DNA of 64,000 bases from Pseudomonadota bacterium (GTDB taxonomy: Bacteria; Pseudomonadota; Gammaproteobacteria; Pseudomonadales; Azotimanducaceae), in assembly GCA_027624035.1 (NCBI GenBank), contig JAQBUI010000004.1:48749-112748 (forward strand). Direction: 5' to 3'. The position numbers and the translations under genes are program-made. This document shows positions 13,264 to 57,862 of the stretch, piece after piece. The notes beneath the pieces were generated by a model, which did no database searches, was not told the origin of the DNA, and saw nothing but the letters and a program-made list of their open reading frames with translations. Each line of letters starts with the position of its first letter. Positions within the stretch are counted from its first letter, which is position 1.

Positions 13264-13410
13264 CTTTCATGGAAGTTCCGGTCCTGCACAGTGAGAGTCC
13301 TGGATACTTCCCGGTACGACTACGGCATCCCTGATACGGGCACGCGCAAGGCTGCTGGTGGACCACACGATACAGTGGCACGCCTGACACGGACACGCTG
13401 ATGGCTTTCA
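13264..13410 (+). repeat. Dispersed repeat locus A (one full unit and one partial unit)
   Basis: The gap 13187-13540 has no gene. It holds a full copy of the dispersed repeat (13264-13356). Its blocks are ATGGAAGTTCCGG, then ACTTCCCGGTACGACTACGG, then a GGGCACGC block and a terminal AAGGCTGCT. A second, partial copy (13377-13410) keeps only the right part, CGCCTGACACGGACACGCTG. In the full copy the right stem-loop is imperfect (GGCATCC against GGGCACGC). Confidence 0.75.
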
Positions 13411-13540
13411 GGACCGTAACGATTTGAGTACTCTGTCCCCGGCGTGGTGGTTTATCGTGATTCGCCCGCCGTACATGCCCCGGTCCGTTGAACCGACCGG
13501 GGTAGCAGAGTTTGGAACGATGTCTGGCTGCGGAGATTAG

Positions 13541-14320
13541 ATGATGGCTGAATCGGTATTGCTGGTAGAAGAGCACGACGGCGTTTGCGTACTGACGCTC
13601 AATCGACCGGAGAAATTGAACGCGTTGTCCCTGGCGTTGCGGCAACGCTTTCAGGAGGAGATCCTTCGGCTGCAACAGGACGACAGCATCAGTGTGGTCA
13701 TACTCACCGGTGCCGGCCGGGCCTTCTGCGCCGGGCTGGACTTGAAGGAGATGGGCGATGCCGAGTTCCGCAAGGGCGAAACGCCAGTGACTGACCCGGC
13801 CACGCTGCTGAGGACACTGAAACAACCGGTGATTGGTGCCATCAACGGGCTGGCCGTGACCGGCGGACTCGAGATCTCACTGTCCTGCGACATTCTGCTG
13901 GCCACGCCGGAAACGCGGTTCGCGGACACCCATGCCAGGGTCGGGCTGGTGGCCGGCTGGGGGCTCTCGCAAAGACTGCCCCGGGTCATAGGCCCTTTCA
14001 GAGCAAAAGAGATGTCGCTGACCGGCAATTTCCTGTCTGCAGAACGTGCCTATGAATGGGGGCTGGTGAATCGAGTGGTGCCCAGGGATGAACTGATGCC
14101 GACCGCCCTCGGAATGGCACAGGACATGATTTCGTGCGTTCCGGAAGCCATGTTCACCTACAAGCGCATGATTGATCATGGCTATGACCTGCCGCTCGGC
14201 GAGGCGATGAACTACGAACTTGAGGCCAACCGGGCACACCGGGGGCCAACGCCAGAGACGGTAGCAGCAAGACTCAGCGGGGTGCAGTCCCGAGGCAGGG
14301 CGCAGGCCAGCAAGGACTGA
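13541..14320 (+). CDS. Enoyl-CoA hydratase/isomerase family protein
   Basis: A 259-residue crotonase-fold protein. N-terminal VCVLTLNRPEKLNALS, the first oxyanion-hole segment GAGRAFCAGLDLKEMG and the second one (AINGLAVTGGLEISLSCD) are all present. The position of the second catalytic Glu in the hydratase alignment is not obvious to me, so hydratase, isomerase or a related lyase cannot be separated. Tandem ATGs open the frame (ATGATG) with GGAG upstream. The gene converges with another crotonase gene at 14.37 kb. Confidence 0.85.
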   Translation: MMAESVLLVEEHDGVCVLTLNRPEKLNALSLALRQRFQEEILRLQQDDSISVVILTGAGRAFCAGLDLKEMGDAEFRKGETPVTDPATLLRTLKQPVIGAINGLAVTGGLEISLSCDILLATPETRFADTHARVGLVAGWGLSQRLPRVIGPFRAKEMSLTGNFLSAERAYEWGLVNRVVPRDELMPTALGMAQDMISCVPEAMFTYKRMIDHGYDLPLGEAMNYELEANRAHRGPTPETVAARLSGVQSRGRAQASKD

Positions 14321-14373
14321 CAGGGACCTCGTTCAACAGAGCCAACCGGGCAGAGCTTACTGTCTTGAAGTAC

Positions 14374-15162
14374 TTAACGCCCCTTGAATTCCGGTTTTCG
14401 CTTGGCCAGAAATGCACTGATGCCTTCTTCCTTGTCCTGGGTCTGCAGCAGTGCGCCCTGGGCAAATTTCTCCATCGTGAGCGCCGCCGCGACTGAACCC
14501 TCCATCCCCTGATGGACCATGGTCTTCATGAAGTGGGGCACAAAAGGTGCGAAGGTCGCGAGGTGCTCTGCCATCCGACTGACCTCCGGGATCAGTTCAG
14601 GCGCCTCCACCATTCTGGTGACAAGGCCAATCTGCAGGGCGCGCTCGGCATTGATTGGCTCACCCATCAGCATCATCTCCAGCGCCCAGCCCTTTCCAAC
14701 AATACGGGGAAGGCGCGCGGTGGCGCCGCCGCCCGGGATAATGCCGAGCTTGCCCTCGGGCGTTGCAAACCGGCTGGCGGGCGTGCAGACGCGCAGGTCA
14801 CACCCGAGGGCGACCTCCAGCCCGCCGCCCATACAAATCCCGTCGATTGCCGCGATGGTTGGTTTCGGCAATTCTTCAAGTTGCCGGGCGAGGCCCTGGA
14901 CAATCGGTTCCATGGCCTTTCGCAGGTCACGACTGGCGACCTCGGCAAGGTCTGACCCGGACGCAAAGGCGCGCCCACCAGCACCGGTGATGGCAATCAC
15001 ACGGACCTGCTCGTCCGCCGCCGCAAGCGAAACTGCCTGCTGCAGTTCAGCCAGGGTCTGCAGTGAGATCGCATTGTGCTTGTCCGGACGGTTCATGGTA
15101 ATCAGCGCCAGCGGCGCCATCACCTCATACAGAATGCACGTGAAAGAATCCGAATTCATCAA
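14374..15162 (-). CDS. Enoyl-CoA hydratase/isomerase family protein
   Basis: A 262-residue crotonase. Motifs are LITMNRPDKHNAIS near the N-terminus, GAGGRAFASGSDLAEVASRD at the first oxyanion hole and AIDGICMGGGLEVALGCDLRV at the second, followed by PEGKLGIIPGGGATARLPR, which fits the hydratase subgroup with a catalytic Glu in this loop. Its ATG overlaps the stop of the upstream TauD gene by 4 bases (ATGA), so the two are translationally coupled. It likely handles a CoA-thioester intermediate in beta-oxidation or a related route. Confidence 0.87.
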   Translation of the reverse strand: MMNSDSFTCILYEVMAPLALITMNRPDKHNAISLQTLAELQQAVSLAAADEQVRVIAITGAGGRAFASGSDLAEVASRDLRKAMEPIVQGLARQLEELPKPTIAAIDGICMGGGLEVALGCDLRVCTPASRFATPEGKLGIIPGGGATARLPRIVGKGWALEMMLMGEPINAERALQIGLVTRMVEAPELIPEVSRMAEHLATFAPFVPHFMKTMVHQGMEGSVAAALTMEKFAQGALLQTQDKEEGISAFLAKRKPEFKGR

Positions 15163-16031
15163 CTTGCCTCAGCGAGCGCCCACTCGTTGTCGCCATCACC
15201 AGCGACAGTAGTGCGTACCATTGATCGTTTCTGGTGCTGCGGCCAGAGATGGCCACGGTGAAGTACACAGCGGTTGTCCCACATACCGAGATCGCCAGGC
15301 TGCCAGCGATATTTCCAGAGCCGGGGAGGCTGGCAGGCATCACTCGTCAGCGTTTTCAGCAGCGCCCGGCTTTCTGCCTCATCCTGGCCAACAATATGAC
15401 TGGCATGGCGCCCGACAAACAGGCTCTTGCGTCCCGTATCGGGATGCACTTTGACCACTGCATGTTCTACCGGAGGCAGATGGCGAACATCCTCGTCAGA
15501 GATCACTTCAAGGCCGCCATGCCAGCTGTGGCTGTAGACATAACTGTGAATCGCCACTTTGTCCTCCAGCCAGTCTTTCATGCCGGCATCCAATGCGTCC
15601 CAGGCGGCACGCATATCGGCCCACTCCGTCTCGCCGCCCTCTTCGGGCACCACGTGGGCCGCGAGCAGCGACGCTTTCGCACCCACCCGCTTGTAGGAGC
15701 TATCGGAATGCCAGTGGGTATTACCAACGTGAAATCGCCACTGCAGGCTCGTCGGTTCGACAACGCTACCGTCCCGGTTGATGTTGGTCATCCTCGCCAG
15801 TGCCGAGGAGACCGATGGCGACGAGGCTCTTTTCAGCCCCTGTTCCAGCCTGCCGAACCGTTTTGAAAACGCCACATGGTCCTCATCGGACAGATGCTGA
15901 TCGCGAAATACCAGCACCCCGAATTCATGCCACGCATCTTCAATATCGCGGAATTCGGACGGACTGATGCTGGAAAGCCTGACGTCCTCGACCAATGCCC
16001 CCAGCGTCGCACCAACCGGCCTGATCTTCAT
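15159..16031 (-). CDS. TauD/TfdA family Fe(II)/2-oxoglutarate dioxygenase
   Basis: A 290-residue 2OG dioxygenase. The N-terminus (PVGATLGALVEDVRLSSIS) and FRDQHLSDEDHVAFSKRFG are typical of TauD/TfdA. Metal ligands are the His and Asp of THWHSDSSY and the distal His in DNRCVLHRG. The closest type by reading is 2,4-D/alpha-ketoglutarate dioxygenase-like. The ATG at 16031 has AGGAGGG six bases upstream; a GTG one codon earlier is also open. It is coupled to the downstream crotonase gene by ATGA overlap and follows a third crotonase gene, so the three probably form one operon. Confidence 0.88.
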   Translation of the reverse strand: MKIRPVGATLGALVEDVRLSSISPSEFRDIEDAWHEFGVLVFRDQHLSDEDHVAFSKRFGRLEQGLKRASSPSVSSALARMTNINRDGSVVEPTSLQWRFHVGNTHWHSDSSYKRVGAKASLLAAHVVPEEGGETEWADMRAAWDALDAGMKDWLEDKVAIHSYVYSHSWHGGLEVISDEDVRHLPPVEHAVVKVHPDTGRKSLFVGRHASHIVGQDEAESRALLKTLTSDACQPPRLWKYRWQPGDLGMWDNRCVLHRGHLWPQHQKRSMVRTTVAGDGDNEWALAEAS

Positions 16032-16059
16032 CACAGCCCTCCTGATTCACCCTTTGGAA

Positions 16060-16941
16060 TCACTTTCTGTAAGTATCCATCTCCTTATAGGGCCCGTCCC
16101 GCCAGGCCAGTGCATCCTTCAGGCCTTTTTCCCGCACCTGATCCCGCCACGCATAGGCATACTCGGTGAACTGGGCCATGGCGTCCTGCTCCGTGCTGCT
16201 GCGCACCGAGGAGTAGATACCCATGTTCTCGTAGAAGCGGTTCATGTTGACCTTCAGAATGCCAAGATGGTCTGCAGACGCGATGGCAATCCGGTCAGCG
16301 AAAGCGATCGTCCGCTCCTCGAGCGAGGCCTCCGGCCAGGCATAGTTGATCATGCCGATTCGCTCTGCCTCGGTCCCGGAGATGTACTCGCCGGTATAGG
16401 ACAACTCCTTGGCCTTGCGCATGCCGATGACCAGCGGCCAGATCACGCCGTTACGGGCAACACCCAGGCCCCGGTGACCAGGATGACCTATCTTGGCGTC
16501 GTCCGCCGCCACCACCAGGTCCGCCATCATGGCCAGTTCACACCCGCCCGCCGCGGCATAGCCATGGATGCAGGCGATGGTCACCTTGGCCATATTCCAG
16601 AAATACATCTGTACGTCTGTAATCTGCTGCATGGCGGTGCGCATACCCATGGTCAGCGGCCTGCCTTTGTCGTCAACGGTCTTGTAGGATCGATTGACCG
16701 CCACACCAGTGCCACCCCGACTCGGCGTCAGATCGTAGCCAGCACTAAAGGCGCGGCCGCTGCCCCGCAGGATGATGGCACGAATGGAATGATCCGCCTC
16801 CATATCATGCAGTGCATGGTCCAGTTCCTGATACAGCTCGCCAGACAGTGCGTTCAGTTTCTCCGGTCGATTGAGCGTGATGCGCCCGACCCGATCATCA
16901 GTGCCAACGCGGTCGATCGCCAGGTTTTCGTAATCAGTCAT
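16060..16941 (-). CDS. Enoyl-CoA hydratase/isomerase family protein
   Basis: A 293-residue crotonase, with the N-terminal phrase VGRITLNRPEKLNALSGE and the oxyanion-hole stretches GSGRAFSAGYDLTPSRGG and CIHGYAAAGGCELAMMADLVV. The C-terminal part (residues 200-293) is longer than in the neighbours and rich in aromatic residues (YENMGIYSSVRSS). The open frame continues 41 codons upstream; the ATG at 16941 gives the normal family N-terminus, preceded by a modest GGAGAACTCT site. It heads the crotonase-TauD-crotonase cluster. Confidence 0.85.
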   Translation of the reverse strand: MTDYENLAIDRVGTDDRVGRITLNRPEKLNALSGELYQELDHALHDMEADHSIRAIILRGSGRAFSAGYDLTPSRGGTGVAVNRSYKTVDDKGRPLTMGMRTAMQQITDVQMYFWNMAKVTIACIHGYAAAGGCELAMMADLVVAADDAKIGHPGHRGLGVARNGVIWPLVIGMRKAKELSYTGEYISGTEAERIGMINYAWPEASLEERTIAFADRIAIASADHLGILKVNMNRFYENMGIYSSVRSSTEQDAMAQFTEYAYAWRDQVREKGLKDALAWRDGPYKEMDTYRK

Positions 16942-17131
16942 AGAGTTCTCCAGTAAAAGGGGCAGGTCAGCAAGGATAAACCACCTTGATTGAATTGTCC
17001 CAGTGGACCTTCTGGCCGCTTGACGGCGACGAGTTCGGGGCGAAGACAATCGCCCGCGACACAAGGCCCGGTTGTCGGAATGACGCCGGTGGCAGACAAT
17101 ACAGCCCCGCTTGCAGGATCAGGAGATCACC

Positions 17132-18100
17132 TTGCCACTGAATCCCCAGACAGAACAGCTCGTCAATGGACTGAATACCGCCAACGAAGGCCGGCCAGCA
17201 ACCCATGAACTCGAACCCGACGTGGCTCGTGCCGGGTATCGTGCGCTGGGCACTGCCTTTGGCCCCGCGCCGGAGGTGCCGTCGGTCAGGGACCGGACCA
17301 TCAAAGGTCCCGCCGGAGACATTCCGGTACGAATCTATTCCCCGGCCGGAGAGGGTCCATACCCACTGATCGTCTATTTTCATGGCGGTGGCTGGGTGAT
17401 CGGCGATCTTGAAACCCACGACCGGGAATGTCGGCTGCTGTGCAACGATACCGGTGCGGTGGTCATGGCCGTGGATTACCGGCTGGCGCCGGAGCATCCC
17501 TTCCCGGCATCCCACGAGGATTGCTGGGCCGCGACTCAATGGGCAGGCAGGCATGCCGCCGAGTTGGCCGCTGACCCCGCCCGGATTGCCGTGGCTGGCG
17601 ATTCCGCCGGTGGCAATCTTGCCGCGTACGTCGCCCTGATGGCCCGCGATGCGGGTCTTGCTCTCGCACTGCAGGTGCTGATCTACCCGGCCACCGACGC
17701 ACGGGGTCACAACCCTGCCTATGCAGGTGAGCGCTATCCATCATTGATTGAAAACAGCGAAGCGCCTTTTTTGACCCGCGATACGATGACCTATTTCTTC
17801 CGACACCTGACGGTCGGACTGGACGCCGGGGAAGTCGCAAACGACTGGAGAATGTCGCCGCTTTTGGCCTCAAGTCACGAGGGGCTTGCGCCAGCCTTTA
17901 TCGCCACCTGTGAATTCGACCCGATCCGGGACGAGGGAAATGCCTATGCAGAGAAGCTCACGGACGCTGGTGTGACGGTCACTCACAAATGCTGGCCCGG
18001 CCAGCCGCACCTGCTGTTTCAGCTCTCACCCGTGCTGGATGACGGCAAGGCATTGATGGCAGAAACGGTGGCGGCGCTCAAGACCGCTTTTGATCGTTAG
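17132..18100 (+). CDS. Alpha/beta hydrolase, hormone-sensitive-lipase (acetyl esterase) type
   Basis: A 322-residue esterase of the HSL family, which hydrolyses short acyl esters. It shows the HGGGW oxyanion motif (YFHGGGWVIGD), the nucleophile elbow GDSAGGN, the catalytic Asp region (ATCEFDPIRDEG) and a C-terminal His (GQPHLLFQL). The open frame begins at a TTG at 17111, but a second TTG at 17132 has AGGAG seven bases upstream and is the better start. Its 3' end overlaps the 3' end of the convergent SDR gene by 23 bases. Confidence 0.87.
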   Translation: MPLNPQTEQLVNGLNTANEGRPATHELEPDVARAGYRALGTAFGPAPEVPSVRDRTIKGPAGDIPVRIYSPAGEGPYPLIVYFHGGGWVIGDLETHDRECRLLCNDTGAVVMAVDYRLAPEHPFPASHEDCWAATQWAGRHAAELAADPARIAVAGDSAGGNLAAYVALMARDAGLALALQVLIYPATDARGHNPAYAGERYPSLIENSEAPFLTRDTMTYFFRHLTVGLDAGEVANDWRMSPLLASSHEGLAPAFIATCEFDPIRDEGNAYAEKLTDAGVTVTHKCWPGQPHLLFQLSPVLDDGKALMAETVAALKTAFDR

Positions 18101-18815: not shown

Positions 18816-18853
18816 CTCTTGATCCTCATGCCCTTTTCCCTTCTCCTTTTTCC

Positions 18854-19909: not shown

Positions 19910-20003
19910 GATGGGTGTCCCGAAATTGCCAGAAGAATAAGAGCCGCAATAATCGCCGATTTCGACTTCCCCTGCCAGCCGATGGCATCGGGAATGGGAG
20001 CCG

Positions 20004-20092
20004 ACAGTCCTGAGCGTGCCCGTCTCGGGCACGCCGTAGTCGCGCTGGTAAGTCTCCCGGGCCGCACGCCATAGAAGAGTACTGACATGAAG
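20004..20092 (-). repeat. Dispersed repeat locus G (one unit, minus orientation)
   Basis: A copy of the dispersed repeat on the minus strand between the Ldh-family gene and the GST gene. It holds the perfect right hairpin (GCGTGCCC, loop GAGAC, GGGCACGC). Its left part (TTCATGTCAGTACT, GGCCCGGGAGACTTACCA) matches the second unit of locus B at 41.75 kb far better than it matches the other copies, so the family has at least two subtypes. It is the only minus-strand copy in the window. Confidence 0.75.
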
Positions 20093-31505: not shown

Positions 31506-32024
31506 TCATTCGCCGTCGGCTGGCCGACATTGGATGTCGGGCAGGAGCCACCGCCGTTGTGATTCCAGCACTTTCATGGACGGCGCGACTCTGGATTGCG
31601 AGGTTCGGGGAACTTGTCGGCCCGCCAACGACGAGCCTGGCTCTGGCACGCCAAGGGCTTCCAGAACACACTCGCCGGATACCAGCAGCAGTCTGAACCG
31701 GTGGACCTGATCGGTGCGGTAGCCCTGGACCAGCCCGTCAATAGTGCGCAACGGAATCGGCTCAATGACCAGCAGTGACGTTCGGGTCAGGGCATCGGGA
31801 GACAGCATCACCTGATCGCGATCAAGAGCCGTCGCCACAACCCGGGCCAGGACATCACGGCTGGCATCGGTGGGGGCAACGATGATGGCCTCCCGTTCAA
31901 CCGGGCTCGAAGCGCAGCCACCCGCCATCAGGATACACAGAACCAGCCATACGGCGGCGCGACGCGGGCCCTGATTCCCCGCGTACCCTCTGAATCCGGA
32001 TGCCCCCGGCGTCCGCCATGTCAT
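31506..32024 (-). CDS. Hypothetical lipoprotein
   Basis: A 172-residue protein. The start is taken at the ATG at 32024, which overlaps the stop of the S41 protease gene (ATGA); a longer frame upstream would run inside that gene. A signal sequence (AAVWLVLCILMAGGC) with a lipobox Cys lies near residue 37. The mature part is not recognised (EREAIIVAPTDASRDVLARV). It is the second gene of the operon. Confidence 0.72.
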   Translation of the reverse strand: MTWRTPGASGFRGYAGNQGPRRAAVWLVLCILMAGGCASSPVEREAIIVAPTDASRDVLARVVATALDRDQVMLSPDALTRTSLLVIEPIPLRTIDGLVQGYRTDQVHRFRLLLVSGECVLEALGVPEPGSSLAGRQVPRTSQSRVAPSMKVLESQRRWLLPDIQCRPADGE

Positions 32025-33829
32025 TGGGCCTCCCCGAACGGCGTGGCCCGCAGGGTCATGGACTTCAGCCACAGGGGTTTGACGGTGACACCCTCAGAGA
32101 TGAGGCTGCTGGCCCGGCGCGTACCAAAGCCGGTCGCTTCCGGGCAGGTTCCCGTGGCCCGATACTCCAGTGCTGCAGCGAGCCTGAGTTCTTCCGGGTC
32201 TCCTAATGCCCTTGAGTAGTCGTCCGGCACGCTGCAACCGGGCAGGACTGCACCACCAACTGCCCCACCGGGTGAGAATCCGTCAGCGAAATCACCAAAC
32301 CCTCTGGCGTTGACGGATCGAAACTGAATGGTGAAATACGTCGTGCCGCAGTTTTCCAGTGGATAGAACCCGAACGGCTTGCCACAAGTGCTGTTGCCAA
32401 TCTGAATCACTTCTACGTTGACGCCATTCAACCCGTTGATGATGGCCTCACTGGCAGAACAGGTACCGCCACCGGTCAGGACAAACACCCGCGGCAGGCT
32501 GAGTGTGGGTAACGGCACCCCGGCGCCACCGAGAAAACCCACGGCGGTGGATCGAAACCGGGTCGGCAACAGGAAGCCGCCCGTGACCGGGTCAAAGAAC
32601 GGATGCTTGTCGTTGAACTCCAGCTCATAGAAAACCTGGCCTGCCACCGCCGTGCCGCCAATCATGTAGGCCAGTTCGTTGGCGATGGACAAGAAGCCGC
32701 CACCGTTGTAACGAACGTCCAGAATCAGATCAGTCACTTGCTCGTCCCCGAGCAATGTGATCGCATCGATGAGTTTGCTCTCGGCGGTGGCGATGTGATC
32801 GTTGAACTGGAGATAGCCAACCTTGCCGGTGTCCGTTTCGATCGTCGCCACCACCGGAACCGGATCTGTGGTGGTCGCTTGACTCACCATGGTAATGGCA
32901 TGGGGCTCGGCAGCACCAAACGCCTGCACCAGGAAGGTGTGTGACTCGCCGTTGGCAACGGGAAACAGCCCGCTGTTCAGGACATCCGCGTTGCCGCTTG
33001 CGACATTGACGCCATCGACTTCGAGTATCTCGGTGCCCCGCGTGAGGCCCGCTGTGGCTGCTGGCGAATCGGCCTCAATATAGGCCACCAGCGCCTGACG
33101 AGGTGGTGTTGTGCGGACCAGCGTGAAGATTGCACCGTATCCCGACACCACGCCCGACTGGGATAGCTGCCGCCATTCCTCCGAATCATAGGTGAAATGG
33201 AACTGATCCTTCGGCCTGCCGGATGGCGTGAGCGCAAAGGTGCGCATCAGTGAAAAATACGTCAGAGGGTCAGCGTACTCGCCCGGGTCGACATCCACGA
33301 TCTCGTCATACCAGAGGTAGGTGTCGTTGCTCATGGAGCGAATCCAGAAATTCTCGTCGGTCACCGTTCCCTGGGTATCCACGAAGTTCCCGGCGCGTGG
33401 GGTCTCGCACAGCGCATTGAAGTTATCGGCGGGCTCGAAAACGCCCGCTACCCAGCCGGAACCCGTGTCAGTTCCGTCACCGGTATCGGTGCCATCGCCA
33501 GACCCATCACCCGCATCTGTACCATCGCCGCTTCCGTCACCTGTATCAGTCCCATCACCTGCGTCGGTACCATCGCCTGTGTCAGTACCATCACCTGTGT
33601 CGGTGCCATCGCCCGTGTCGGTGCCATCGCCCGTGTCAGTGCCATCGCCTGTGTCCGTGCCGTCTCCAGCACCATCACCTCCGCCATCACCTGCGCCGCC
33701 TCCTGACCCGCCATCACTTCCCACCGGGGCCGGCTGTGGCGCGGGGCTACTTCCCCCGCCGCCGCCACCGCAGCCGGCAAGCACGAATGACATCGAAAGG
33801 CAGAACAGCAGGTTGGTTGCAAGACGCAT
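32021..33829 (-). CDS. S41 family peptidase lipoprotein with Asp-Gly-Thr repeats
   Basis: A 602-residue C-terminal-processing-type (S41) serine protease exported as a lipoprotein: signal peptide with the lipobox LAGC (Cys20), a polyglycine stretch, then a linker of about 11 GDGTDTG-like repeats (residues about 50-125). A PDZ-like segment follows (AYIEADSPAATAGLTRGTEI). The protease domain contains GKVGYLQFNDH, DLILDVRYNGGG and the nucleophile region FVLTGGGTCSASEAIING. The start at 33829 gives a normal signal peptide; the frame is open further up. It heads a four-gene operon of lipoproteins and may act on cell-envelope proteins in the periplasm. Confidence 0.88.
   Translation of the reverse strand: MRLATNLLFCLSMSFVLAGCGGGGGGSSPAPQPAPVGSDGGSGGGAGDGGGDGAGDGTDTGDGTDTGDGTDTGDGTDTGDGTDTGDGTDAGDGTDTGDGSGDGTDAGDGSGDGTDTGDGTDTGSGWVAGVFEPADNFNALCETPRAGNFVDTQGTVTDENFWIRSMSNDTYLWYDEIVDVDPGEYADPLTYFSLMRTFALTPSGRPKDQFHFTYDSEEWRQLSQSGVVSGYGAIFTLVRTTPPRQALVAYIEADSPAATAGLTRGTEILEVDGVNVASGNADVLNSGLFPVANGESHTFLVQAFGAAEPHAITMVSQATTTDPVPVVATIETDTGKVGYLQFNDHIATAESKLIDAITLLGDEQVTDLILDVRYNGGGFLSIANELAYMIGGTAVAGQVFYELEFNDKHPFFDPVTGGFLLPTRFRSTAVGFLGGAGVPLPTLSLPRVFVLTGGGTCSASEAIINGLNGVNVEVIQIGNSTCGKPFGFYPLENCGTTYFTIQFRSVNARGFGDFADGFSPGGAVGGAVLPGCSVPDDYSRALGDPEELRLAAALEYRATGTCPEATGFGTRRASSLISEGVTVKPLWLKSMTLRATPFGEAQ
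33462..33665. repeat. 18-base tandem repeats inside the S41 protease gene
   Basis: Degenerate tandem copies, mostly 18 bases long, encode the GDGTDT linker on the minus strand. Third codon positions vary between copies (GTGTC, GTATC and similar on the plus strand), so the array is not freshly expanded. Copy number could still vary between strains. Confidence 0.75.
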
Positions 33830-33896
33830 CGTTTTCACATCGTTATGGCGGTGTTTGGTATAGTGCGCGGTCGGCAAACCATCAAGCACACTGACT

Positions 33897-34598
33897 ATGA
33901 CATCCTCAGAGATTCTTGGTTCTTCCCAATATCTGTACTTTATCAGACATGGCCAGACCGAATGGAATGCCATTCATCGGATGCAGGGCCAGTGGAACTC
34001 CGACCTGAATGCCCTGGGGCGCTCCCAGGCTGACCGGAACGGCAGGCTGCTGGCAAAACTGGGAGTGGATGCGATCTTTGCCTCGCCGCTGGACCGCACC
34101 CGGCAGACCGCAGAGATCATCAACCGCTATCTGTCGCTGCCCGTCACCTACGATGACCGCATCATGGAATGGGACTGTGGCGACTGGAGCGGCCACCTCT
34201 ACGCAGAGGTCCAGCAGAAGTGGCCGGGGCAGTGGCAGGCGTATCAGGCGGACCGCTTCAACTATCGTGGCCCGAATTGTGAAAACTTCCACGACATGAT
34301 TGCACGATCAACACCGTTCATCGAGGAACTGCGCACCCATCCGGCGCGGCGAATTGCCATCGTCTCTCACGGTCTGATCGGCAAGATCATGGTGTCGACC
34401 CTGCTGGGTCTGTCTGAACACGATACGCTGGCCTTCGGCCAGGATAACGATGTGGTCTTCAGGCTGAAACTTGACGGCAGTGAATACGGCGTCGATCAGC
34501 AGGCAGCAAATCAGGCCGGCATTACCGCGGATCACTTCGTCAATGGCAAGGGGCCCTATCCTGGCCATCAAGCGAGCAGAGCGCAGCGAGGGGCGTGA
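33897..34598 (+). CDS. Histidine phosphatase family protein
   Basis: A 233-residue protein of the phosphoglycerate-mutase-like branch. It shows the catalytic RHG motif in YFIRHGQTEWN (residues 17-19), the second pocket region ASPLDRTRQTAEII, the acidic residue region IMEWDCGDWSGH and the second His in IAIVSHGLIGKIM. The length suits a broad-specificity phosphatase rather than a glycolytic mutase. The ATG at 33897 has no clear ribosome site. It is divergent from the lipoprotein operon, with only 67 bases between them. The physiological substrate is unknown. Confidence 0.87.
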   Translation: MTSSEILGSSQYLYFIRHGQTEWNAIHRMQGQWNSDLNALGRSQADRNGRLLAKLGVDAIFASPLDRTRQTAEIINRYLSLPVTYDDRIMEWDCGDWSGHLYAEVQQKWPGQWQAYQADRFNYRGPNCENFHDMIARSTPFIEELRTHPARRIAIVSHGLIGKIMVSTLLGLSEHDTLAFGQDNDVVFRLKLDGSEYGVDQQAANQAGITADHFVNGKGPYPGHQASRAQRGA

Positions 34599-41657: not shown

Positions 41658-41835
41658 CATGGAAGTTCCGGCCGCACGCTGTGCCGTCGTCCGGAAACTT
41701 CCCCGCACGACCAAGACGTGCCTGAACCGGACACGCTCAGGGCTTTTCATGTAAGTACTGTTCTATGGTGTGCCGCCCGGGAGACTTACCATCACGACCA
41801 GGGCGTGCCAACCCGGACACGCTCAAGGCTGCTAG
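41658..41835 (+). repeat. Dispersed repeat locus B (two tandem units of different subtype)
   Basis: The gap 41509-41869 has no other gene. Unit 1 (41658-41745) has CATGGAAGTTCCGG, CCGGAAACTTCCCC and GACGTGCC...GGACACGCTCAGGGCT. Unit 2 (41744-41835) has a different left half (TTCATGTAAGTACTGTTCTA, CGCCCGGGAGACTTACCA) like locus G, and the common right half GCGTGCC...GGACACGCTCAAGGCTGCTAG. It ends only 35 bases before the start of the following hydrolase gene, so it may sit in the leader of that gene. Confidence 0.75.
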
Positions 41836-44174: not shown

Positions 44175-44214
44175 TCAAAAATTAGGAAAATTAGGGTCAG
44201 AGTCGAATTCTATG
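44172..44214. repeat. AT-rich short repeat resembling sequence near REP-associated transposases
   Basis: AAAAATTAGG, AAAATTAGGG and TCAGAGTCGAATTC follow each other. A related phrase, GTCAAAAATTAGGGTGAATTC, occurs at about 29600-29620. From memory, AATTAGGGTCAGAGT-like strings often border IS200-like/REP-associated tyrosine transposase genes in gammaproteobacteria. No transposase is present here, so at most it is a footprint. Confidence 0.35.
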
Positions 44215-44273
44215 CCGTCCGGAAAACTACCTCACGACCACGGCATTCCTCGCACGGGCACACTCAGGGCTGG
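44214..44273 (+). repeat. Dispersed repeat locus C (partial unit)
   Basis: A shortened copy: GCCGTCCGGAAAACTACC, CACGACCACGGCATTCC, then CGGGCACACTCAGGGCTGG. It lacks the left ATGGAAGTTCC block. It lies in the 342-base gap 44175-44516 after the frameshifted PhyH gene. Confidence 0.65.
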
Positions 44274-46115: not shown

Positions 46116-46218
46116 TTCATAGAAGTCCACTGAAACGAGCTGCCAGCGTGAGCACCTCCCTGCACGACTACGGCATACCTGAGACCGGCACGCTCAAGGC
46201 TGGCATGGAAGTTCATTG
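46116..46218 (+). repeat. Dispersed repeat locus D
   Basis: One unit (46116-46204) with CACGACTACGGCATACCTG, then CCGGCACGCTCAAGGCTGGC, followed by the start of another (CATGGAAGTTCATTG). The 349-base gap 46074-46422 between divergent genes holds this repeat. The remainder shows an open but not gene-like frame and presumably the promoters. Confidence 0.7.
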
Positions 46219-52140: not shown

Positions 52141-52254
52141 GGATTCCGGTTTCAAAGAGTCAGCCGCGAAAATACTATGATTCACTCAACGGAACCAGCC
52201 CACAGTGGCATCAGCGCTCCCGGCAGACACCAATGCCAACGACAGGCGCTGACC

Positions 52255-52338
52255 TTCACGGAAGTTGCCGCACACTGCGCGTCTGGGAACTTCCTGAACC
52301 AACCAGGGCGTGCCTGGCACGGGCACACAGGGCTACCC
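52255..52338 (+). repeat. Dispersed repeat locus E (one unit)
   Basis: One unit in the 287-base divergent gap: CGGAAGTTGCCG, CTGGGAACTTCC, AACCAGGGCGTGCCTGG, then CACGGGCACACAGGGCTACC. The left stem is present with a mismatch. The unit lies before the tandem 13-base repeats and the SDR operon start. Confidence 0.7.
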
Positions 52339-52349
52339 GGCGTAATGCT

Positions 52350-52387
52350 GACTACAAGTGCAGACTACAAGTGCTGACTACAAGTGC
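52350..52387. promoter_or_regulatory. Three tandem 13-base repeats upstream of a catabolic operon
   Basis: GACTACAAGTGC occurs three times, at 52350, 52363 and 52376, with an exact period of 13 bases. It ends 40 bases before the ATG of the first operon gene, immediately followed by TATATTC, which could be a -10 box. The array may bind a regulator. There is no regulator gene next to it. Confidence 0.5.
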
Positions 52388-52427
52388 TATATTCCCGGTC
52401 CAGGATTCGACACCATTGAGAGGGCCA

Positions 52428-53282
52428 ATGACAGGCAGACTGGAAGGTCAGGTAGCCATCATCACGGGCGGGGCATCGGGTATGGGGCTTGCCACCGTGA
52501 AGCTGTTTCTTGAGGAGGGCGCGCGCGTCATCATCGCCGATATTCAGGATGAACCGGGGGAAAGACTCGCCGCGGAACTGGGGGAATGCGCCCGGTATCA
52601 GCACGTGGACGTCAGCAAGGAGGCCGACGTCGAGGCTGTCGTCGACCGGGCCATGGATGAGTTTGGCCGCCTCGACTGCATGTTCAACAATGCCGGTTTC
52701 GGTGGCGTCGGTGGCGAGCTCGAAACCATGGACCTGACCGATCGATATCGCTTTACCGTGGACGTGCTGTTCACCGGCGTTCTGTCGGGTATCAAGCATG
52801 CGTCCCGGGTCATGAAGACCCAGGAATCAGGCGGTAGCATCATCAATACCGCGTCCGTGGCCGGCCTGCGGGGAGGCTGGGGCCCACATGTATACAGCGC
52901 GATGAAGGCCGCTGTCATTAACCTTTCGAAATCAACCTCTCTCGAATTGGGACCACACAGGATTCGGGTCAATGCCATTTGCCCCGGCTTCATTGCCACG
53001 GCGATCTTCGCTGGCCAGGCAAACATCAGCTGGGACCAGCGAATGCGCTTTATTGAGGAACTGGAGCAGACCCAGACCGTGGCCACACCCATCCAGCGCC
53101 CCGGACGCGGCAAAGATATCGCCGAACTGGCGCTATTTCTGGCAGGGCCGGATTCTACCTTCATCACCGGTCAGGCGATTGCCGTTGACGGGGGTCTGAC
53201 CGCGGGCAACATCCGCAACCCCGGCCCGGAAGGCTGGTCCCGTTTCCAGGAAATCCTCAATCGCGTCCAGAGTGCAACATGA
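52428..53282 (+). CDS. SDR family oxidoreductase (first gene of catabolic operon)
   Basis: A 284-residue classical SDR: TGGASGMG (12-19), NNAG (MFNNAGFGGVGG), Ser in NTASVAGLRGG and YSAMK, then ITGQAIAVDGGLTAG. The Asp in IIADIQDE after the second strand suggests preference for NAD. It starts at the ATG at 52428; the open frame upstream covers repeats. Its TGA overlaps the ATG of the acyl-CoA dehydrogenase gene by 4 bases, so the two are coupled. Likely oxidises a hydroxy intermediate of an acyl-CoA pathway. Confidence 0.9.
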   Translation: MTGRLEGQVAIITGGASGMGLATVKLFLEEGARVIIADIQDEPGERLAAELGECARYQHVDVSKEADVEAVVDRAMDEFGRLDCMFNNAGFGGVGGELETMDLTDRYRFTVDVLFTGVLSGIKHASRVMKTQESGGSIINTASVAGLRGGWGPHVYSAMKAAVINLSKSTSLELGPHRIRVNAICPGFIATAIFAGQANISWDQRMRFIEELEQTQTVATPIQRPGRGKDIAELALFLAGPDSTFITGQAIAVDGGLTAGNIRNPGPEGWSRFQEILNRVQSAT

Positions 53283-54502
53283 GCGCCATTGCAACAGAAC
53301 TGCCTGAAGACGTTCAAATGGCCCGGGACGGCCTGCTTGCCTTCGTGCGACAGGAGGTCATACCCCGACATGATGACCACCGGACACTGTTTGAAGACCC
53401 GCGACGGGTCTACGACGAAAACGGCCGTTTCTCGAGCGAGGTGATCACGCTCATCAATGAGGTCAGAACCGCGTCCGCGCGGGCAGGCTTCTACCACATG
53501 TGCGCGCCCACCAGTCTGGGTGGTGGCGGGCTTGGTCACCTGGCGTACTACGTTGCCTGGGAGGCCCTGTTTCATCAGTGCGGGCCGCAGAACTGGCTCA
53601 TGCTTTACGCCCTCGCGCACTGGGCTTTTGGCCCGAGTCGATTGCTGGAGCAGATCACCCCCGATGCCCGGGAGCGATTCCTGCCAGGCCTCATGGACGG
53701 CAGCCAGTCCATGTGCTTCGGTCTGTCAGAGCCCAATGCCGGATCAGACGCCAGTATGATTGCGACCCGGGCCGTCCCCGATGGCGACGGCTTCCGCATT
53801 TCCGGCAGGAAGATCTGGACCAGCAACGCACCCATCGCCGACTACTGCGTCGTCTTCGCGGTCACGGACCCGACCGGCAAGCCCGGGATCACCGCCTTCA
53901 TGGTGCCGACGGACGCGCCGGGATTTCACATGCAGAGGGTGGTTCGCCTGTTTGGCCACATTGGTGGTGATGAGGCAGAAATCGTACTTGAAGATGTCTA
54001 CGTGGAACCGTGGCAGATCGTTGGCAAGCAGGACAACGGCTTCGCGGCAGCGCTGTATGGCGTGTCACTCGGGAGAATCTATAATTCTGCCCGGTCGGTC
54101 GGCTACGGCCGCTGGGCCCTTGAAATGGCGCTCGACTACTCCGGGACCCGGCGGGCCTTTGGTCAACCGATTTCGGAGTATCAGGGTGTCAGTTTTCCGC
54201 TGGCCGAATCTGCCACCGAGTTGCACGCGGCCCATTTGATGGGGCTGAATGCGGCGACCCTGCTTGACCAGGGCGAGCGCGCCGTCAAGGAGCTTTCCAT
54301 GACCAAAGCTTATTCGGTACAGGTGGGATTCCGGGCGCTGGACCGTGCCATCCAGACCCATGGTGCCATGGGTTTTACCAATGAACTCGGATTGACTGAA
54401 GCTTGGCACTCGCTGCGCATCGTCAACGTGGCAGATGGTACCAACGAGATCCTGAATCGCACGATTGCCCAGCGGCTTTTGAAGGGCGACACGGAACTCT
54501 GA
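53279..54502 (+). CDS. Acyl-CoA dehydrogenase family protein
   Basis: A 407-residue flavoprotein that makes the alpha,beta double bond in acyl-CoAs. Typical blocks are the FAD-binding segment SMCFGLSEPNAGSDASM, the following RISGRKIWTSNAPIADYCVV, the SRRAFG-like block GTRRAFGQPISEYQ and the C-terminal IVNVADGTNEILNRTIAQRL. Coupled to the upstream SDR by ATGA and followed by a CoA-transferase gene 63 bases later. The chain length or ring substrate cannot be read from the sequence. Confidence 0.9.
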   Translation: MSAIATELPEDVQMARDGLLAFVRQEVIPRHDDHRTLFEDPRRVYDENGRFSSEVITLINEVRTASARAGFYHMCAPTSLGGGGLGHLAYYVAWEALFHQCGPQNWLMLYALAHWAFGPSRLLEQITPDARERFLPGLMDGSQSMCFGLSEPNAGSDASMIATRAVPDGDGFRISGRKIWTSNAPIADYCVVFAVTDPTGKPGITAFMVPTDAPGFHMQRVVRLFGHIGGDEAEIVLEDVYVEPWQIVGKQDNGFAAALYGVSLGRIYNSARSVGYGRWALEMALDYSGTRRAFGQPISEYQGVSFPLAESATELHAAHLMGLNAATLLDQGERAVKELSMTKAYSVQVGFRALDRAIQTHGAMGFTNELGLTEAWHSLRIVNVADGTNEILNRTIAQRLLKGDTEL

Positions 54503-54565
54503 CCAGGACCTTAAACTACGGGTCAGTCCCCGCCCCGGAATTGACCAGAATTGATGGAGCAGAAA

Positions 54566-55738
54566 ATGGATTACCCCCTGGCTGACCTCAAGGTATTGGA
54601 CTTCTCCAGGGTACTGGCAGGGCCCTATGCAGGGCGCATGCTCAGCGACCTTGGCGCTGACGTGGTCAAGGTCGAACCGCCGGAAGGGGACGTCACGCGC
54701 TACTGGGGGCACGTCATCGGGGGCCTGCCCGGTTATTACAACCAGCAGAATGCAGGCAAGCGAAACATCTGTGTCGATCTGCGAGCGACCGGTGCAAAAG
54801 ATCTGATTCTCGATCTGGTACGCCATGCTGACATCGTCATCGAGAACTATCGGCCCGACGTGATGGGCCGGCTCGGAATTGACTACCCGGCGCTGTCCAG
54901 TGCCAATCCGCGCCTCATCATGTTGTCCATCTCTGGCTTCGGACCCAATGGCCCGGAATCACGCCGGCCGACTTACGCACCCGTCATTCATGCCGAGGCC
55001 GGCCTGGTGGCCCGCCTCGCCCATCGCAGCGGCCAGCCGCATTCGGATTTCCCCACTTCTCTGGCCGATACCAACGCAGCGTTGCACGGTCTTGTGGGCA
55101 TCCTCGCGGCCCTGCACTACCGGGACCTGAGCGGCCTGGGTCAACACATCGATATCGCAATGATGGATGCGACCATCGGCACCGATGATCAACTTCACTA
55201 TGACCTGGAGGGCTCCCACGACACCGGGCCGTTACCGAACGACATCTGGGAAACACCCATCGGCCCAATTCTGCTGTCAACCGATTTCCGATACCTGTGG
55301 AACTGTCTGACGACCCAGCGGGGCCTCGAAGATCCGTCGGATCCGGACATGCCAAGGCAACAGCGGATCGCGCTGCGCAGAAAGGCAACCGCAAAGTTCA
55401 TGCAGACACTCGCTACCCGCGAGGCGGTGGTCGAACTGATGGATGCCTTCAATATTCCCTGGGGCGATGTTCGCCAGGGCAAAGCGACGCCGGAGCAGAT
55501 CACCCTGCGGCACCGCTCCAGCTTTACCGAAGTGGATGACCGCGCTGGCGGCACGCGCACCGTGACCCAGTCTCCCTATCGATTCAGCAACGCAAAAAGC
55601 GGGGTCCGCGGCCCGGCCCCGCATCAGGGAGAGCACAACGCCGAGGTACTGAAACAGTGGCTGGGTGCCGACCAAAGCCGGATCCACAAGATGCAGGAGG
55701 AAGGCATCCTGCTGACCGATGAAAAACGCGCGAGGTAG
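54566..55738 (+). CDS. CaiB/BaiF (family III) CoA transferase
   Basis: A 390-residue CoA transferase that moves CoA between carboxylic acids. LKVLDFSRVLAGPYAGRMLSDLGADVVKVEPP is the family signature, and the catalytic Asp fits SLADTNAALHGLVGI. The length is normal. The ATG at 54566 has GGAG eight bases upstream; earlier ATG and TTG codons are less likely. With the SDR and acyl-CoA dehydrogenase it forms an activation-plus-beta-oxidation set. Confidence 0.9.
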   Translation: MDYPLADLKVLDFSRVLAGPYAGRMLSDLGADVVKVEPPEGDVTRYWGHVIGGLPGYYNQQNAGKRNICVDLRATGAKDLILDLVRHADIVIENYRPDVMGRLGIDYPALSSANPRLIMLSISGFGPNGPESRRPTYAPVIHAEAGLVARLAHRSGQPHSDFPTSLADTNAALHGLVGILAALHYRDLSGLGQHIDIAMMDATIGTDDQLHYDLEGSHDTGPLPNDIWETPIGPILLSTDFRYLWNCLTTQRGLEDPSDPDMPRQQRIALRRKATAKFMQTLATREAVVELMDAFNIPWGDVRQGKATPEQITLRHRSSFTEVDDRAGGTRTVTQSPYRFSNAKSGVRGPAPHQGEHNAEVLKQWLGADQSRIHKMQEEGILLTDEKRAR

Positions 55739-55806
55739 GGCAGCATGACGCCGTCAAGCTGTGTTACGCTCATGCGCCCCCGGAATTAAGAAAGGACCCA
55801 CGCAGC

Positions 55807-56613
55807 ATGGGAGATCGTCTGAAAGGTAAGGTAGCCGTGATCACCGGCGGAACCAGCGGTATCGGCGAGGCGACCGTAGAACTGTTCGTCAATGAAGGCG
55901 CAAAGGTTGTCTTCTGCGGACGCTCGGAAGAGAAAGGGCAGGCCCTCGCCGATCGGGTCGGCGAGGCAGCGGTGTATGTGAAGGCGGATGTGATGTCTGA
56001 AGCGGATATCAAGCAGACGATTGACACCGCAGTGAGTCAGTTTGGCGGCCTGGACATATTATTCAACAATGCCGGCGGGCCGACCAAAGGGACCATTGAC
56101 GGGGTGACCCCGGAGGATATCAATTACGCCTGGCAGTTGCTGTTCTCCAGCGCGGTGCTTGGCACCAAGCACGCCACCGCCCACCTGAAAGCCAGGGGTG
56201 GCGGTGCGATCATCAATAACTCCAGCATCGCAGCCATCCGTGATAATCAGGGTGACCTGCTTTACTCTGCCGTCAAAGCGGCGCTCACCCACTATTCAAA
56301 GCTCTCAGGGGTTCGTCTCGGTCCCCTCGGCATCAGAGTCAACACCATCTCACCGGGTGCCATCGCCACGCCAATTTTCTGGGGCGGGTCAGCGAGGGCC
56401 AACACCCTTGCCCGGGAAGACAACGAGCGCAAGATGCAGAAGCTGCAGAAAAATCTGGCCAGGGCGACACCACTGCCGACTTCCGGTCTGGCCATCGACA
56501 TCGCCCACGGCGCACTGTTTCTTGCCAGTGACGAGGGTCGCTACGTCAACAGCCATGATCTGGTTATTGACGGCGGGCGCACCAGCCTGTTCAACGAACC
56601 CCCGCCGAGCTAG
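55807..56613 (+). CDS. SDR family oxidoreductase
   Basis: A 268-residue classical SDR with TGGTSGIG (14-21), NNAG (FNNAGGPTKG), the Ser in NNSSIAAIRDN and YSAVK. The C-terminal VNSHDLVIDGGRT is standard. It continues the SDR-acyl-CoA dehydrogenase-CoA transferase operon after a 68-base gap and precedes the rhodanese gene by 4 bases. Confidence 0.89.
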   Translation: MGDRLKGKVAVITGGTSGIGEATVELFVNEGAKVVFCGRSEEKGQALADRVGEAAVYVKADVMSEADIKQTIDTAVSQFGGLDILFNNAGGPTKGTIDGVTPEDINYAWQLLFSSAVLGTKHATAHLKARGGGAIINNSSIAAIRDNQGDLLYSAVKAALTHYSKLSGVRLGPLGIRVNTISPGAIATPIFWGGSARANTLAREDNERKMQKLQKNLARATPLPTSGLAIDIAHGALFLASDEGRYVNSHDLVIDGGRTSLFNEPPPS

Positions 56614-56617
56614 TCCC

Positions 56618-57517
56618 GTGGCCGCGCTCGAAAACCCTGGCTATCTGGTCAGCACGGAATGGCTGCATGATCATCTGAACGATGAAGGCCTTCGCATTCT
56701 GGATGTCACCGCCATGCTGACTTCAGATCTGACCAATCTCGCCAAAGAAAAGTGTTACGACCAGGGGCATATCCCGGGGTCGGTCCTGTTTGACGTCGGC
56801 AGCGGTCAGGGGAAGTTGTCACGCAAGGACGCCGCACTTCCCTGGACCTGGCCCACACCTGACGAATTCGAAACGACCATGGCAGAATTCGGGATCAGCA
56901 ACCATCACCGGGTGGTGATCGTCGCCCGGACCCCCCGTGAAGGGATTGATTCAGGAACCATGTGGTGTACCCGGACATGGTGGACGTTGCATCACTTTGG
57001 CGTGGAATGCGCCATCCTCGAAGGGGGGCTCGAAAAGTGGGAACGTGAGGCCCGACCATTGACCACAGAACCGGCCGGGGGCTTCCCGACCACCCGCTTC
57101 TCCGTGAATCCTGCCTGGCAGCGTGGCTGCGCCAGCAAGCAGGACGTCCTGAAGGCGATAGAGGCCCGGGACACCTGCCTGGTCGATGCATTGCCAGCCA
57201 CCTCCTTCGACGGTACTACTGGCGGCTACGGCCCGAGGAAGGGTCACATTACCGGCGCGATCAATCGGCCCTTCAGAGATCTCATTGATGGCGAGACAGC
57301 GGCATTCAAGACACCGGAAGAGCTGTCGGATACGCTGCAGGACCTGCTGGACGTACCCCGGGTGATGACCTATTGCGGTGGCGCCATCGCGGCCACCGTC
57401 AACGCCTTCGCCCTGCGACTGCTGGGGCATCCGGCCGTCTCCGTCTACGATGGCAGCCTGATGGAATGGGCCAGTGATGACAGCCTTCCGATGACCGACC
57501 CCAGCCAGGAAAGCTAG
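56618..57517 (+). CDS. Rhodanese-type sulfurtransferase, two domains
   Basis: A 299-residue tandem rhodanese (thiosulfate or mercaptopyruvate sulfurtransferase type). The N-terminal domain (LVSTEWLHDHLNDEGLRILD, HIPGSVLFDV) is inactive. The C-terminal domain carries the active-site cysteine in VMTYCGGAIAATVNAFALRL; CGGAIAA differs from the usual CRxGxx loop, so specificity may be altered. It starts with GTG four bases after the SDR stop, without a clear ribosome site, so it depends on coupling. Its place at the end of a catabolic operon is unusual. Confidence 0.86.
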   Translation: MAALENPGYLVSTEWLHDHLNDEGLRILDVTAMLTSDLTNLAKEKCYDQGHIPGSVLFDVGSGQGKLSRKDAALPWTWPTPDEFETTMAEFGISNHHRVVIVARTPREGIDSGTMWCTRTWWTLHHFGVECAILEGGLEKWEREARPLTTEPAGGFPTTRFSVNPAWQRGCASKQDVLKAIEARDTCLVDALPATSFDGTTGGYGPRKGHITGAINRPFRDLIDGETAAFKTPEELSDTLQDLLDVPRVMTYCGGAIAATVNAFALRLLGHPAVSVYDGSLMEWASDDSLPMTDPSQES

Positions 57518-57688
57518 AAAAGCTAGACCTCGCTGCCTGACCGGCAGCGCCCACAACCCGGATTCAACCCCGAACGCGTACGAATTTCTGCAGCGAATGG
57601 CAATCCAGTGGGACCATGCCCCATCGTCCCCCGCCACTGCAGGTCACTTCACTGACGTACAGATCACCCTTTGAATCGGCCCGGATCC

Positions 57689-57862
57689 CATATGGAAGTT
57701 CCGGTCCTACACTGCGCTCGTCTGGGAACACTTCCCGGTACAACCACGGCGTGCCTGACACGGGCACGCTCAAGGCTTTTATGGAAGTTCCGGCCTACAC
57801 TGTGCAAGTCTGGGGTACTTCCCGGTACGACTACGGCGTGCCCGCACGCTCAAGGCTGCTAT
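57689..57862 (+). repeat. Dispersed repeat locus F (two tandem units)
   Basis: The gap 57518-57875 has no gene; it contains the clearest tandem pair. Unit 1 (57689-57780) has ATGGAAGTTCCGGTCCTACA, then GGGAACACTTCCCGGTACAA and GGCGTGCCTGACACGGGCAC. Unit 2 (57780-57862) has ATGGAAGTTCCGGCCTACAC, GGGGTACTTCCCGGTACGAC and GCGTGCCCGCACGC, in which the right loop has shrunk but the stem remains. The ends AAGGCTTTT and AAGGCTGCTATTG are alike. Confidence 0.8.

What the first reader, a model, noticed from the sequence alone, without database searches (positions are those of the whole stretch)
13264..57862. A dispersed family of about 90-base intergenic repeats at seven loci
Similar units occur at 13264-13410, 20004-20092 (minus), 41658-41835, 44214-44273, 46116-46218, 52255-52338 and 57689-57862, ten or so units in all. 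Shared blocks are ATGGAAGTTCCGG, ACTTCCCGGTACGAC, ACGGCGTGCC and GGGCACGCTCAAGGCT. All lie between genes. Two stem-loops are possible: GGAAGTTCC with GGAACTTCC, and GCGTGCC with GGCACGC. I do not recognise the family. It could be a REP/BIME-like or MITE-like element, or an RNA-level element.
Basis: seen in the sequence. Interest (0 to 1): 0.78.

Follow-up and report, generated by a model that had tools for sequence, protein, structure and literature searches.

The report
Folded 87-base mobile repeat, CT-cut
One bacterial genome carries at least 150 copies of an 87-base repeat unit, predicted to fold into two hairpins, that sits at CT sites between genes and, in frame, inside a few genes; it was not found in any relative searched and is likely moved by a Y1 (REP-type) transposase encoded elsewhere in the genome.

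Summary
The window has ten units at eight loci (31576-31661 was missed). The genome gives at least 150 model matches (cap reached); 227 distinct units in 153 arrays were catalogued, and about 290 is a rough total. None was found in 57 relatives or 389 other genomes of the order. The unit is 86-87 nt, in direct tandem (87 neighbouring pairs same orientation, 2 opposite), with two predicted hairpins; the 5' one shows compensatory changes and a conserved 2-nt bulge. Ends are constant: N|CTTTC-ATGG ... GGG-CT. Four arrays found inside genes are in frame; removing left-CT to right-CT takes out 87, 87, 87 and 246 nt and leaves open proteins; homologues of three of them lack the insert. The genome has two Y1 transposase genes without counterpart in its six congeners. 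Best reading: a non-autonomous element, likely moved as single-stranded DNA by a Y1 enzyme in trans, working like a REP but not filed as one (direct arrays, 87 nt, no tag next to the two hairpins, no unit-flanked transposase gene). The enzyme is inferred, not shown.

The parts
13269..13355 (+). unit (D-type), divergent spacer between PhyH (-) and enoyl-CoA hydratase (+) genes
   Evidence: R1 77.3 bits; flanking genes
13372..13408 (+). 3' fragment of a second unit
   Evidence: nhmmer model positions 50-86, 20.3 bits
20004..20088 (-). unit (C-type)
   Evidence: R1 75.5 bits
31576..31661 (+). diverged unit not in the finding, inside an uncharacterised minus-strand ORF
   Evidence: R1 39.5 bits, E 3.3e-6; ORF 31506-32072 without Pfam match
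41659..41746 (+). first unit of a direct tandem pair
   Evidence: R1 81.7 bits
41749..41832 (+). second unit (C-type) of the pair
   Evidence: R1 71.4 bits
44190..44273 (+). diverged unit, convergent spacer between PhyH (+) and carboxylesterase (-) genes
   Evidence: R1 37.3 bits
46119..46203 (+). unit (B-type)
   Evidence: R1 63.0 bits
52258..52336 (+). diverged unit upstream of a short-chain dehydrogenase
   Evidence: R1 34.5 bits
57692..57779 (+). first unit (D-type) of a direct tandem pair
   Evidence: R1 90.3 bits
57781..57859 (+). second unit of the pair, shortened 3' hairpin
   Evidence: R1 73.7 bits

Best explanation
This is most likely an 87-bp non-autonomous transposable repeat, predicted to fold into two hairpins and found between CT dinucleotides at some 150 places in one genome, that would be mobilised as single-stranded DNA by a Y1 (RAYT-type, HUH) transposase acting in trans. 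Shown: dispersed copies, constant ends, direct tandem arrays of period 86-87, insertion into genes with a net gain of 87 nt (one unit, three cases) or 246 nt (three units, one case), and covarying pairs in the 5' hairpin. Inferred: the enzyme holds the folded strand, cuts at the CT on each side, circularises it (junction GGG-CT-TTCATGG) and joins it into a CT target. Because a resident copy's own 3' end (GGGCT) would itself be a CT target, new copies would land head-to-tail on old ones, which would build the tandem arrays. The effect on the cell is probably selfish spread, with occasional 29-residue in-frame additions to proteins.
For: Copies and restriction: 150 matches at the cap, 227 units in 153 arrays, 0 of 57 relatives, 0 of 389 other genomes of the order. 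Ends: over 99 complete arrays, left C .92 T .89 T .86 T .95 C .92 before ATGG, right GG-CT at .98-1.00; the left CTTTC lies outside the search model, the right GGCT inside it, so only the left is an independent result. Gene insertions: L137 (+87 nt; 4 of 4 other homologues aligned lack it), L128 (+87 nt; 5 of 5 lack it), dnaE2 on L199 (+87 nt; 9 of 9 lack it, in a variable linker), L100 (+246 nt; joined, it reads MSRRTLLGLLGMTLAVSAC, like a lipoprotein signal). Structure: 81 double-change cells against 21.8 +- 3.9 in shuffles, 14 pairs against 7.7; bulge AA/CA/GA/TA in 133 of 144 distinct units. Direct arrays: 87 same, 2 opposite orientation within 150 bp. Enzyme: E. coli TnpA-REP cuts single-stranded REP at a CT 5' or 3' of the structure and needs the stem bulge (PMC8266576, introduction read). 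By PF01797 the genome has three Y1 genes; four of six congeners have one, two none, and those four are orthologues of L033 at the same place, so L031 and L032 have no congener counterpart. Published REPs also sit inside dnaE2 genes (PMC3733652, section read).
Against: No Y1 gene is flanked by intact units in the 3.2-3.3 kb loci looked at: L031 has none, L032 a different flanking repeat plus one diverged unit about 170 bp from its stop, L033 a decayed 5' piece. GTAG or CGTC does not stand directly 5' of either supported hairpin. CT at both ends also fits a recombinase with a 2-bp core. Folding as DNA is mixed: for one A unit the minus strand forms both hairpins but the plus strand does not form the first; for window 57692-57779 neither strand forms the first (z -2.72, -2.42, -1.41, -0.86). 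No orientation bias with GC skew (0.0008 +- 0.0049 over 127 arrays), where lagging-strand targeting might give one; only about 2.4 kb of flank per array was used. The left CT is CC in L137 and TT in L128. The gene cases were found by looking for open frames, so being in frame is partly ascertained.
Confidence: 0.5

Rival explanations
1. The same mobile element, but mobilised by a DNA recombinase with a 2-bp core (an IS110-type transposase or a tyrosine/serine recombinase) through a double-stranded circle whose junction is GGG-CT-TTCATGG.
For: Left-CT-element-CT-right with a single CT at tandem junctions is what a 2-bp core exchange leaves. Two IS110-family genes are present.
Against: No unit lies within the fetched flanks of either IS110 gene (L197, L198). 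An 87-bp double-stranded circle is stiff (general knowledge). Covarying hairpins with a conserved bulge are not needed by tyrosine or serine recombinases.
Confidence: 0.17
2. A minimal derivative of an IS200/IS605-type element (PATE-like): the 5' hairpin is the left end and the 3' hairpin the right end of a parent whose transposase gene has been lost.
For: Two hairpins close to the two ends and constant end sequences.
Against: No longer parent was found: 19 exact left-end pattern hits outside the capped model list were fetched and all were units, complete, shortened or cut by a contig end. The pattern listing itself shows 100 of 182 hits, so a parent is not excluded. The three Y1 genes match the REP-transposase model best, below its cut-off; only L033 also matches IS200, weakly.
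Confidence: 0.15
3. A structured RNA or regulatory element (terminator, attenuator, protein-binding site) spread by duplication.
For: Predicted stems, RNA z-scores down to -3.05; compensatory changes.
Against: All gene arrangements occur around arrays (20 divergent, 25 co-directional, 14 convergent of 59 classified) and no orientation bias; no Rfam match; not found in relatives; present inside coding frames. Two of six units folded as RNA were no better than shuffles.
Confidence: 0.08
4. Copies spread passively by slippage and gene conversion, without a transposition enzyme.
For: Tandem arrays, and 18-19 nt mini-units at five loci, show that slippage-like events happen.
Against: Constant ends at some 150 places and exact 87-nt insertions in genes suggest a cut-and-join step.
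Confidence: 0.05

Closest known systems
REP / BIME elements with TnpA-REP (RAYT) transposases
   Same: Short hairpin repeats with a bulged stem, hundreds of copies, mostly intergenic, some inside genes including dnaE2, CT beside the structure, Y1 genes in the genome.
   Different: 87 nt with two hairpins; no GTAG or CGTC directly 5' of them (a GTAG stands 2 nt before a weaker alternative minus-strand hairpin in 40 of 144 units); direct head-to-tail arrays instead of inverted pairs; common in divergent spacers; no unit-flanked Y1 gene found.
Rickettsia palindromic elements (RPE)
   Same: Palindromic units inserted in frame within protein genes, keeping them open.
   Different: RPEs are about 150 bp with a high intragenic frequency (PMC10969869, passages seen); here only four arrays were recognised inside genes. 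Sequences were not compared.
PATEs and other IS200/IS605-derived miniature elements
   Same: Hairpin at each end, no terminal inverted repeats, single-strand transposition (recalled; only a paper listing was seen).
   Different: No parent element with these ends was found.
Pneumococcal BOX elements
   Same: Modular small repeats with tandem copies and predicted secondary structure (recalled; only the listing and abstract start of PMC3049150 were seen).
   Different: BOX has distinct boxA, boxB and boxC modules (recalled); here whole units repeat. Sequences were not compared.

Membership tests
REP (GTAG or CGTC tagged) | tetranucleotide GTAG or CGTC next to the palindrome, at its 5' end | tested here: inconclusive
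   Not next to the two supported hairpins: GTAG occurs on the plus strand of 2 of 144 distinct units; the 4 nt before the 3' hairpin are CAAC or CTAC in 99 of 144; CGTC precedes the minus-strand 3' hairpin in 3 of 144. But on the minus strand GTAG (40 of 144) or GTTG (59 of 144) stands 2 nt before the alternative hairpin, whose support is weaker
REP / BIME | palindrome of 20-50 nt, paired in inverted orientation | tested here: not met
   86-87-nt two-hairpin unit; 87 neighbouring pairs within 150 bp same orientation, 2 opposite
REP / BIME | bulged stem and a CT beside it (group 2 REP) | tested here: met
   2-nt NA bulge in 133 of 144 and CT at both ends, as sequence features only; cleavage itself not testable here
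REP / REPtron | cognate transposase gene in immediate proximity of its repeats | tested here: not met
   Three Y1 genes, none flanked by intact units in the loci held
MITE | terminal inverted repeats and target site duplication | tested here: not met
   Ends CTTTCATGG and GGGCT[C/G] are not inverted copies; in the gene cases the flanks share at most CT; no systematic duplication scan was run
IS200/IS605 derivative (PATE) | parent element with the same ends and a tnpA gene | tested here: inconclusive
   None among 19 fetched left ends; genome about 92% complete and pattern listing cut at 100 of 182
Structured RNA family (Rfam) | match at gathering score | tested here: not met
   0 matches to 4227 families in the window; only hits far below gathering score for L002 1450-1760 at E up to 5

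The most novel reading that the evidence does not exclude
A new class of REP-like transposable DNA: an exactly 29-codon, two-hairpin, CT-to-CT unit without the regular REP tag, moved in trans by a lineage-specific Y1 transposase, which reinserts at the CT of its own 3' end to build head-to-tail arrays and tolerates coding frames because one unit adds a whole number of codons.
Probability: 0.35. Interest if true: 0.68.

Novelty: new variant of a known kind. Interest (0 to 1): 0.55.

Why it matters
How REPs spread is still described as unresolved (PMC8266576, introduction): cleavage is shown in vitro, dissemination is not. Here a large family, found so far in one species-level genome, has exact 87-nt insertions in genes whose homologues lack them, which gives before-and-after sites. 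It suggests that directly repeated hairpin elements may be a second way in which Y1 enzymes seed genomes, and the question can be tested with purified proteins and one oligonucleotide.

Tried and rejected
The default RNAalifold consensus on the MAFFT alignment gave almost no structure (3 pairs), because one subfamily is shifted by a base there; a structure drawn by hand was used for model R1. Alignment A2 is fitted to that structure and leans towards it.

An alternative hairpin (GTGC/GCAC around GGAA/TTCC) is well conserved, but its covariation is weaker: 33 cells against 17.8 shuffled, 7 pairs against 6.0.

The idea that the L033 Y1 gene is the cognate enzyme was dropped: orthologues sit in the same place in the genus without repeats. 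An autonomous parent with the same left end was sought and not found. The one viral hit and the three genome-contig hits to a degenerate pattern were judged chance: one match each, R1 under 20 bits.

Same-genus genomes are only 64-71% identical over the longer DNA matches, so clean DNA-level empty sites in spacers were not available. In G002 the flank left of 57692 is the 3' part of an NHL-like gene (family recalled, not searched); that site is a gene remnant beside the array, not a clean insertion. Stop-free reading is not above shuffles overall (all three plus frames open in 15% against 16%), though one plus frame is (82% against 55%). The copies on contig C138 include a 97% duplicate of a dnaE2 piece at the contig start, probably a strain chimera; that copy was not used as evidence.
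Full report
What is there. The seven loci of the finding are real, and there is an eighth. Model R1, built from 58 units of the window and own-genome loci, finds ten units in the window at E <= 1e-4, and profile scanning a further 3' fragment at 13372-13408. Units in the window are 79-88 nt. In the genome the commonest tandem spacing is 87 (21 of 46 spacings measured between 75 and 119) and then 86 (10 of 46).

How many, and where. In the own genome (4.81 Mb, 171 contigs, about 92% complete) the model search scored 150 candidates, its cap, and all 150 match. Loci for most of them were fetched. Profile HMM scanning of the window, L001-L063 and L087-L156 gave 227 distinct units of 25 bits or more in 153 arrays: 98 single, 39 double, 14 triple, one of four, one of five. 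A 15-base left-end pattern with up to one mismatch occurs 182 times, control 0; 142 of the 227 known units carry it, which gives a capture-recapture estimate of about 291 units. The two samples are not independent, so this is rough. Several units touch contig ends (for example C39:2, C68:2, C42:1, C103:1), as expected for repeats that break assemblies.

Who else has it. None of 57 relatives (6 same genus, 30 same family, 21 same order) and none of 389 other genomes of the order, a sample that shares members with the 57, has a match. Both calls used stricter filters; up to 77 and up to 11 candidates per genome were scored. A degenerate pattern, which hits 50 of the 82 loci then held, met three contigs among 84,980 species genomes, once each, with model scores under 20 bits, and one viral contig, likewise; a family with only a few or diverged copies would have been missed. 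Phage and plasmid collections gave no match to a three-unit array. The tools warn that records very near the own genome may be left out. Names given to some homologues of neighbouring proteins include Gammaproteobacteria and Pseudomonadales, with a few others; the organism itself was not named.

Anatomy. Reading the plus strand: N-CTTTC-AT-[GGAAG-TTC...loop...GAA-NA-CTTCC]-linker with GCACGAC-[GGCGTGCCC...GGGCACGCT]-NAGGG-CT-[C/G]. The first hairpin comes in subfamilies whose sequences differ but whose pairs are kept: at columns 11-36 of alignment A2, U-G 77, C-G 27, A-U 25; at 12-35, G-C 94 and C-G 21; at 4-46, G-C 102, G-U 15, A-U 7, U-A 6. For both hairpins together, cells with double changes number 81 against 21.8 +- 3.9 in shuffles, and 14 of 20 pairs show one against 7.7; slid structures reach at most 48 cells and 13 pairs. 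The alignment is fitted to the structure, and the double changes mark a few subfamilies, so independent events are far fewer than 81. The bulge reads AA, CA, GA or TA in 133 of 144 distinct units. Energy folding is mixed. As RNA, six units had z-scores of -3.05, -2.73, +0.57, -1.51, -2.03 and +0.12. As DNA, an A unit forms both hairpins on the minus strand but only the second on the plus strand, and window 57692-57779 forms only the second on either strand (z -2.42, -2.72, -1.41, -0.86). If single-stranded DNA is the substrate, the minus strand is therefore the better guess.

Ends and arrays. Over 99 arrays with complete ends the left end is CTTTC (69 exact) and the right end GG-CT, with only weak preferences outside: G at -7 (60%), and after GGCT[C/G] mostly Y, Y, A. 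The right GGCT is part of the search profile, so its constancy is partly built in; the left CTTTC is not. Inside arrays the join is GGGCT[T/C/G]TCATGG, one CT where two ends meet. Neighbours within 150 bp are in the same orientation in 87 cases and opposite in 2.

Insertion in genes. Looking for reading frames that cross arrays, and one further hit, four genes with an in-frame insert were recognised: a membrane protein without Pfam match (L137), an FGE-sulfatase-family protein (L128), error-prone polymerase dnaE2 (L199) and an FG-GAP repeat protein (L100) (Pfam). Taking out the stretch from the left CT position to the right CT removes 87, 87, 87 and 246 nt and leaves all four frames open. For L137 the homologue P0068 (71% identical) reads LEP-R-LLSAV where the joined own protein reads LEP-V-LLAAA; four of four non-conspecific homologues aligned lack the insert. 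For L128 five of five lack 27 columns at the place, while the joined own protein differs slightly in a variable loop, and in G012 the match likewise splits around it. For dnaE2 nine of nine lack it, but the linker is variable and the joined own protein keeps a longer linker than P0078, so that case is less clean. For L100 the joined start reads MSRRTLLGLLGMTLAVSAC, which looks like a lipoprotein signal (recalled pattern); no homologue was aligned. Near-identical protein clusters (P0067, 8 members; P0001, 7; P0077, 5) keep the inserts, so they are not private assembly errors; P0001 differs at the left junction (AA for VF). The left CT is CC in L137 and TT in L128.

Context. Of 59 arrays whose two flanks both scored as coding, 20 lie between divergent, 14 between convergent and 25 between co-directional genes, by a rough codon score; GC skew along the element strand is 0.0008 +- 0.0049 over 127 arrays. 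Published REPs favour convergent and co-directional spacers (PMC3733652, section on genome distribution read). No regulatory orientation is visible.

Likely engine. E. coli TnpA-REP recognises the folded single strand, needs a bulge in the stem, and cuts at a CT 5' or 3' of it (PMC8266576, introduction and cleavage-site section read). The unit has these features as sequence. By PF01797 the genome has three Y1 genes; congeners have one (4 of 6) or none (2 of 6), and the four are the orthologues of L033 (a protein query gave one more, weak match in G003). The extra two, L031 and L032, are the natural candidates. L032 is bordered by a different repeat (GGGGTCGGAGTAAAGTGCCGGAGTAA, twice direct and once, imperfectly, inverted), and L031 by no unit. 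All three score below the NCBIfam REP-transposase cut-off but match that model best. So the enzyme is an inference from analogy and co-occurrence. IS110-type genes (two) are the main other candidates; no unit lies in their fetched flanks.

Filing. Against REP, the inverted pairing and the gene-linked arrangement are not met, and the tag test is inconclusive: nothing stands next to the two supported hairpins, but a minus-strand GTAG stands 2 nt before the weaker alternative hairpin in 40 of 144 units. It works like a REP but is not filed as one. It is best called a new variant of the known kind 'non-autonomous hairpin repeat'. Searches of the paper library for RAYT/BIME, in-frame palindromic elements, a related family name with repeat terms, PATE and BOX listed no paper whose title or abstract start describes this family; the library is partial and the repeat's letters were not searched there.

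Noticed in passing
L006, L019, L061, L131, L192: Tandem mini-units of 18-19 nt (about ACACGCTCAGGGCTGTTA) beside arrays: both hairpins are gone and only the end-to-end CT junction is repeated. No such pair in 45 control loci (189 kb).
   Followed up: partly
window 57583-57692 (minus): Remnant of the 3' end of an NHL-like gene, 82% identical over 110 nt to an intact gene in congener G002 (L081), abuts the 57692 array.
   Followed up: partly
L032 1150-2030: A Y1/RAYT gene bordered by GGGGTCGGAGTAAAGTGCCGGAGTAA-type repeats, a separate repeat not studied here.
   Followed up: no
L033 and L158, L159, L161, L162: A Y1 transposase gene kept next to an exbD/tolR-like gene in the genus (neighbour recognised by eye from its translated start), apparently inherited vertically; a decayed unit follows its stop only in the own genome.
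   Followed up: yes
G000 contig C138, about 1-280 and 2850-3160: A piece of dnaE2 with its unit occurs twice at 97% identity, the first at a contig start right after the dnaE2 stop: probably a strain chimera in the assembly.
   Followed up: partly
window 33462-33703: Degenerate coding repeat with spacings of 18-36 nt near the 5' end of a 650-aa S41 peptidase ORF (32021-33973, minus).
   Followed up: no
L100 1-1566 (minus): A three-unit array splits what looks like a lipoprotein signal peptide in frame, which would be expected to change its export.
   Followed up: partly
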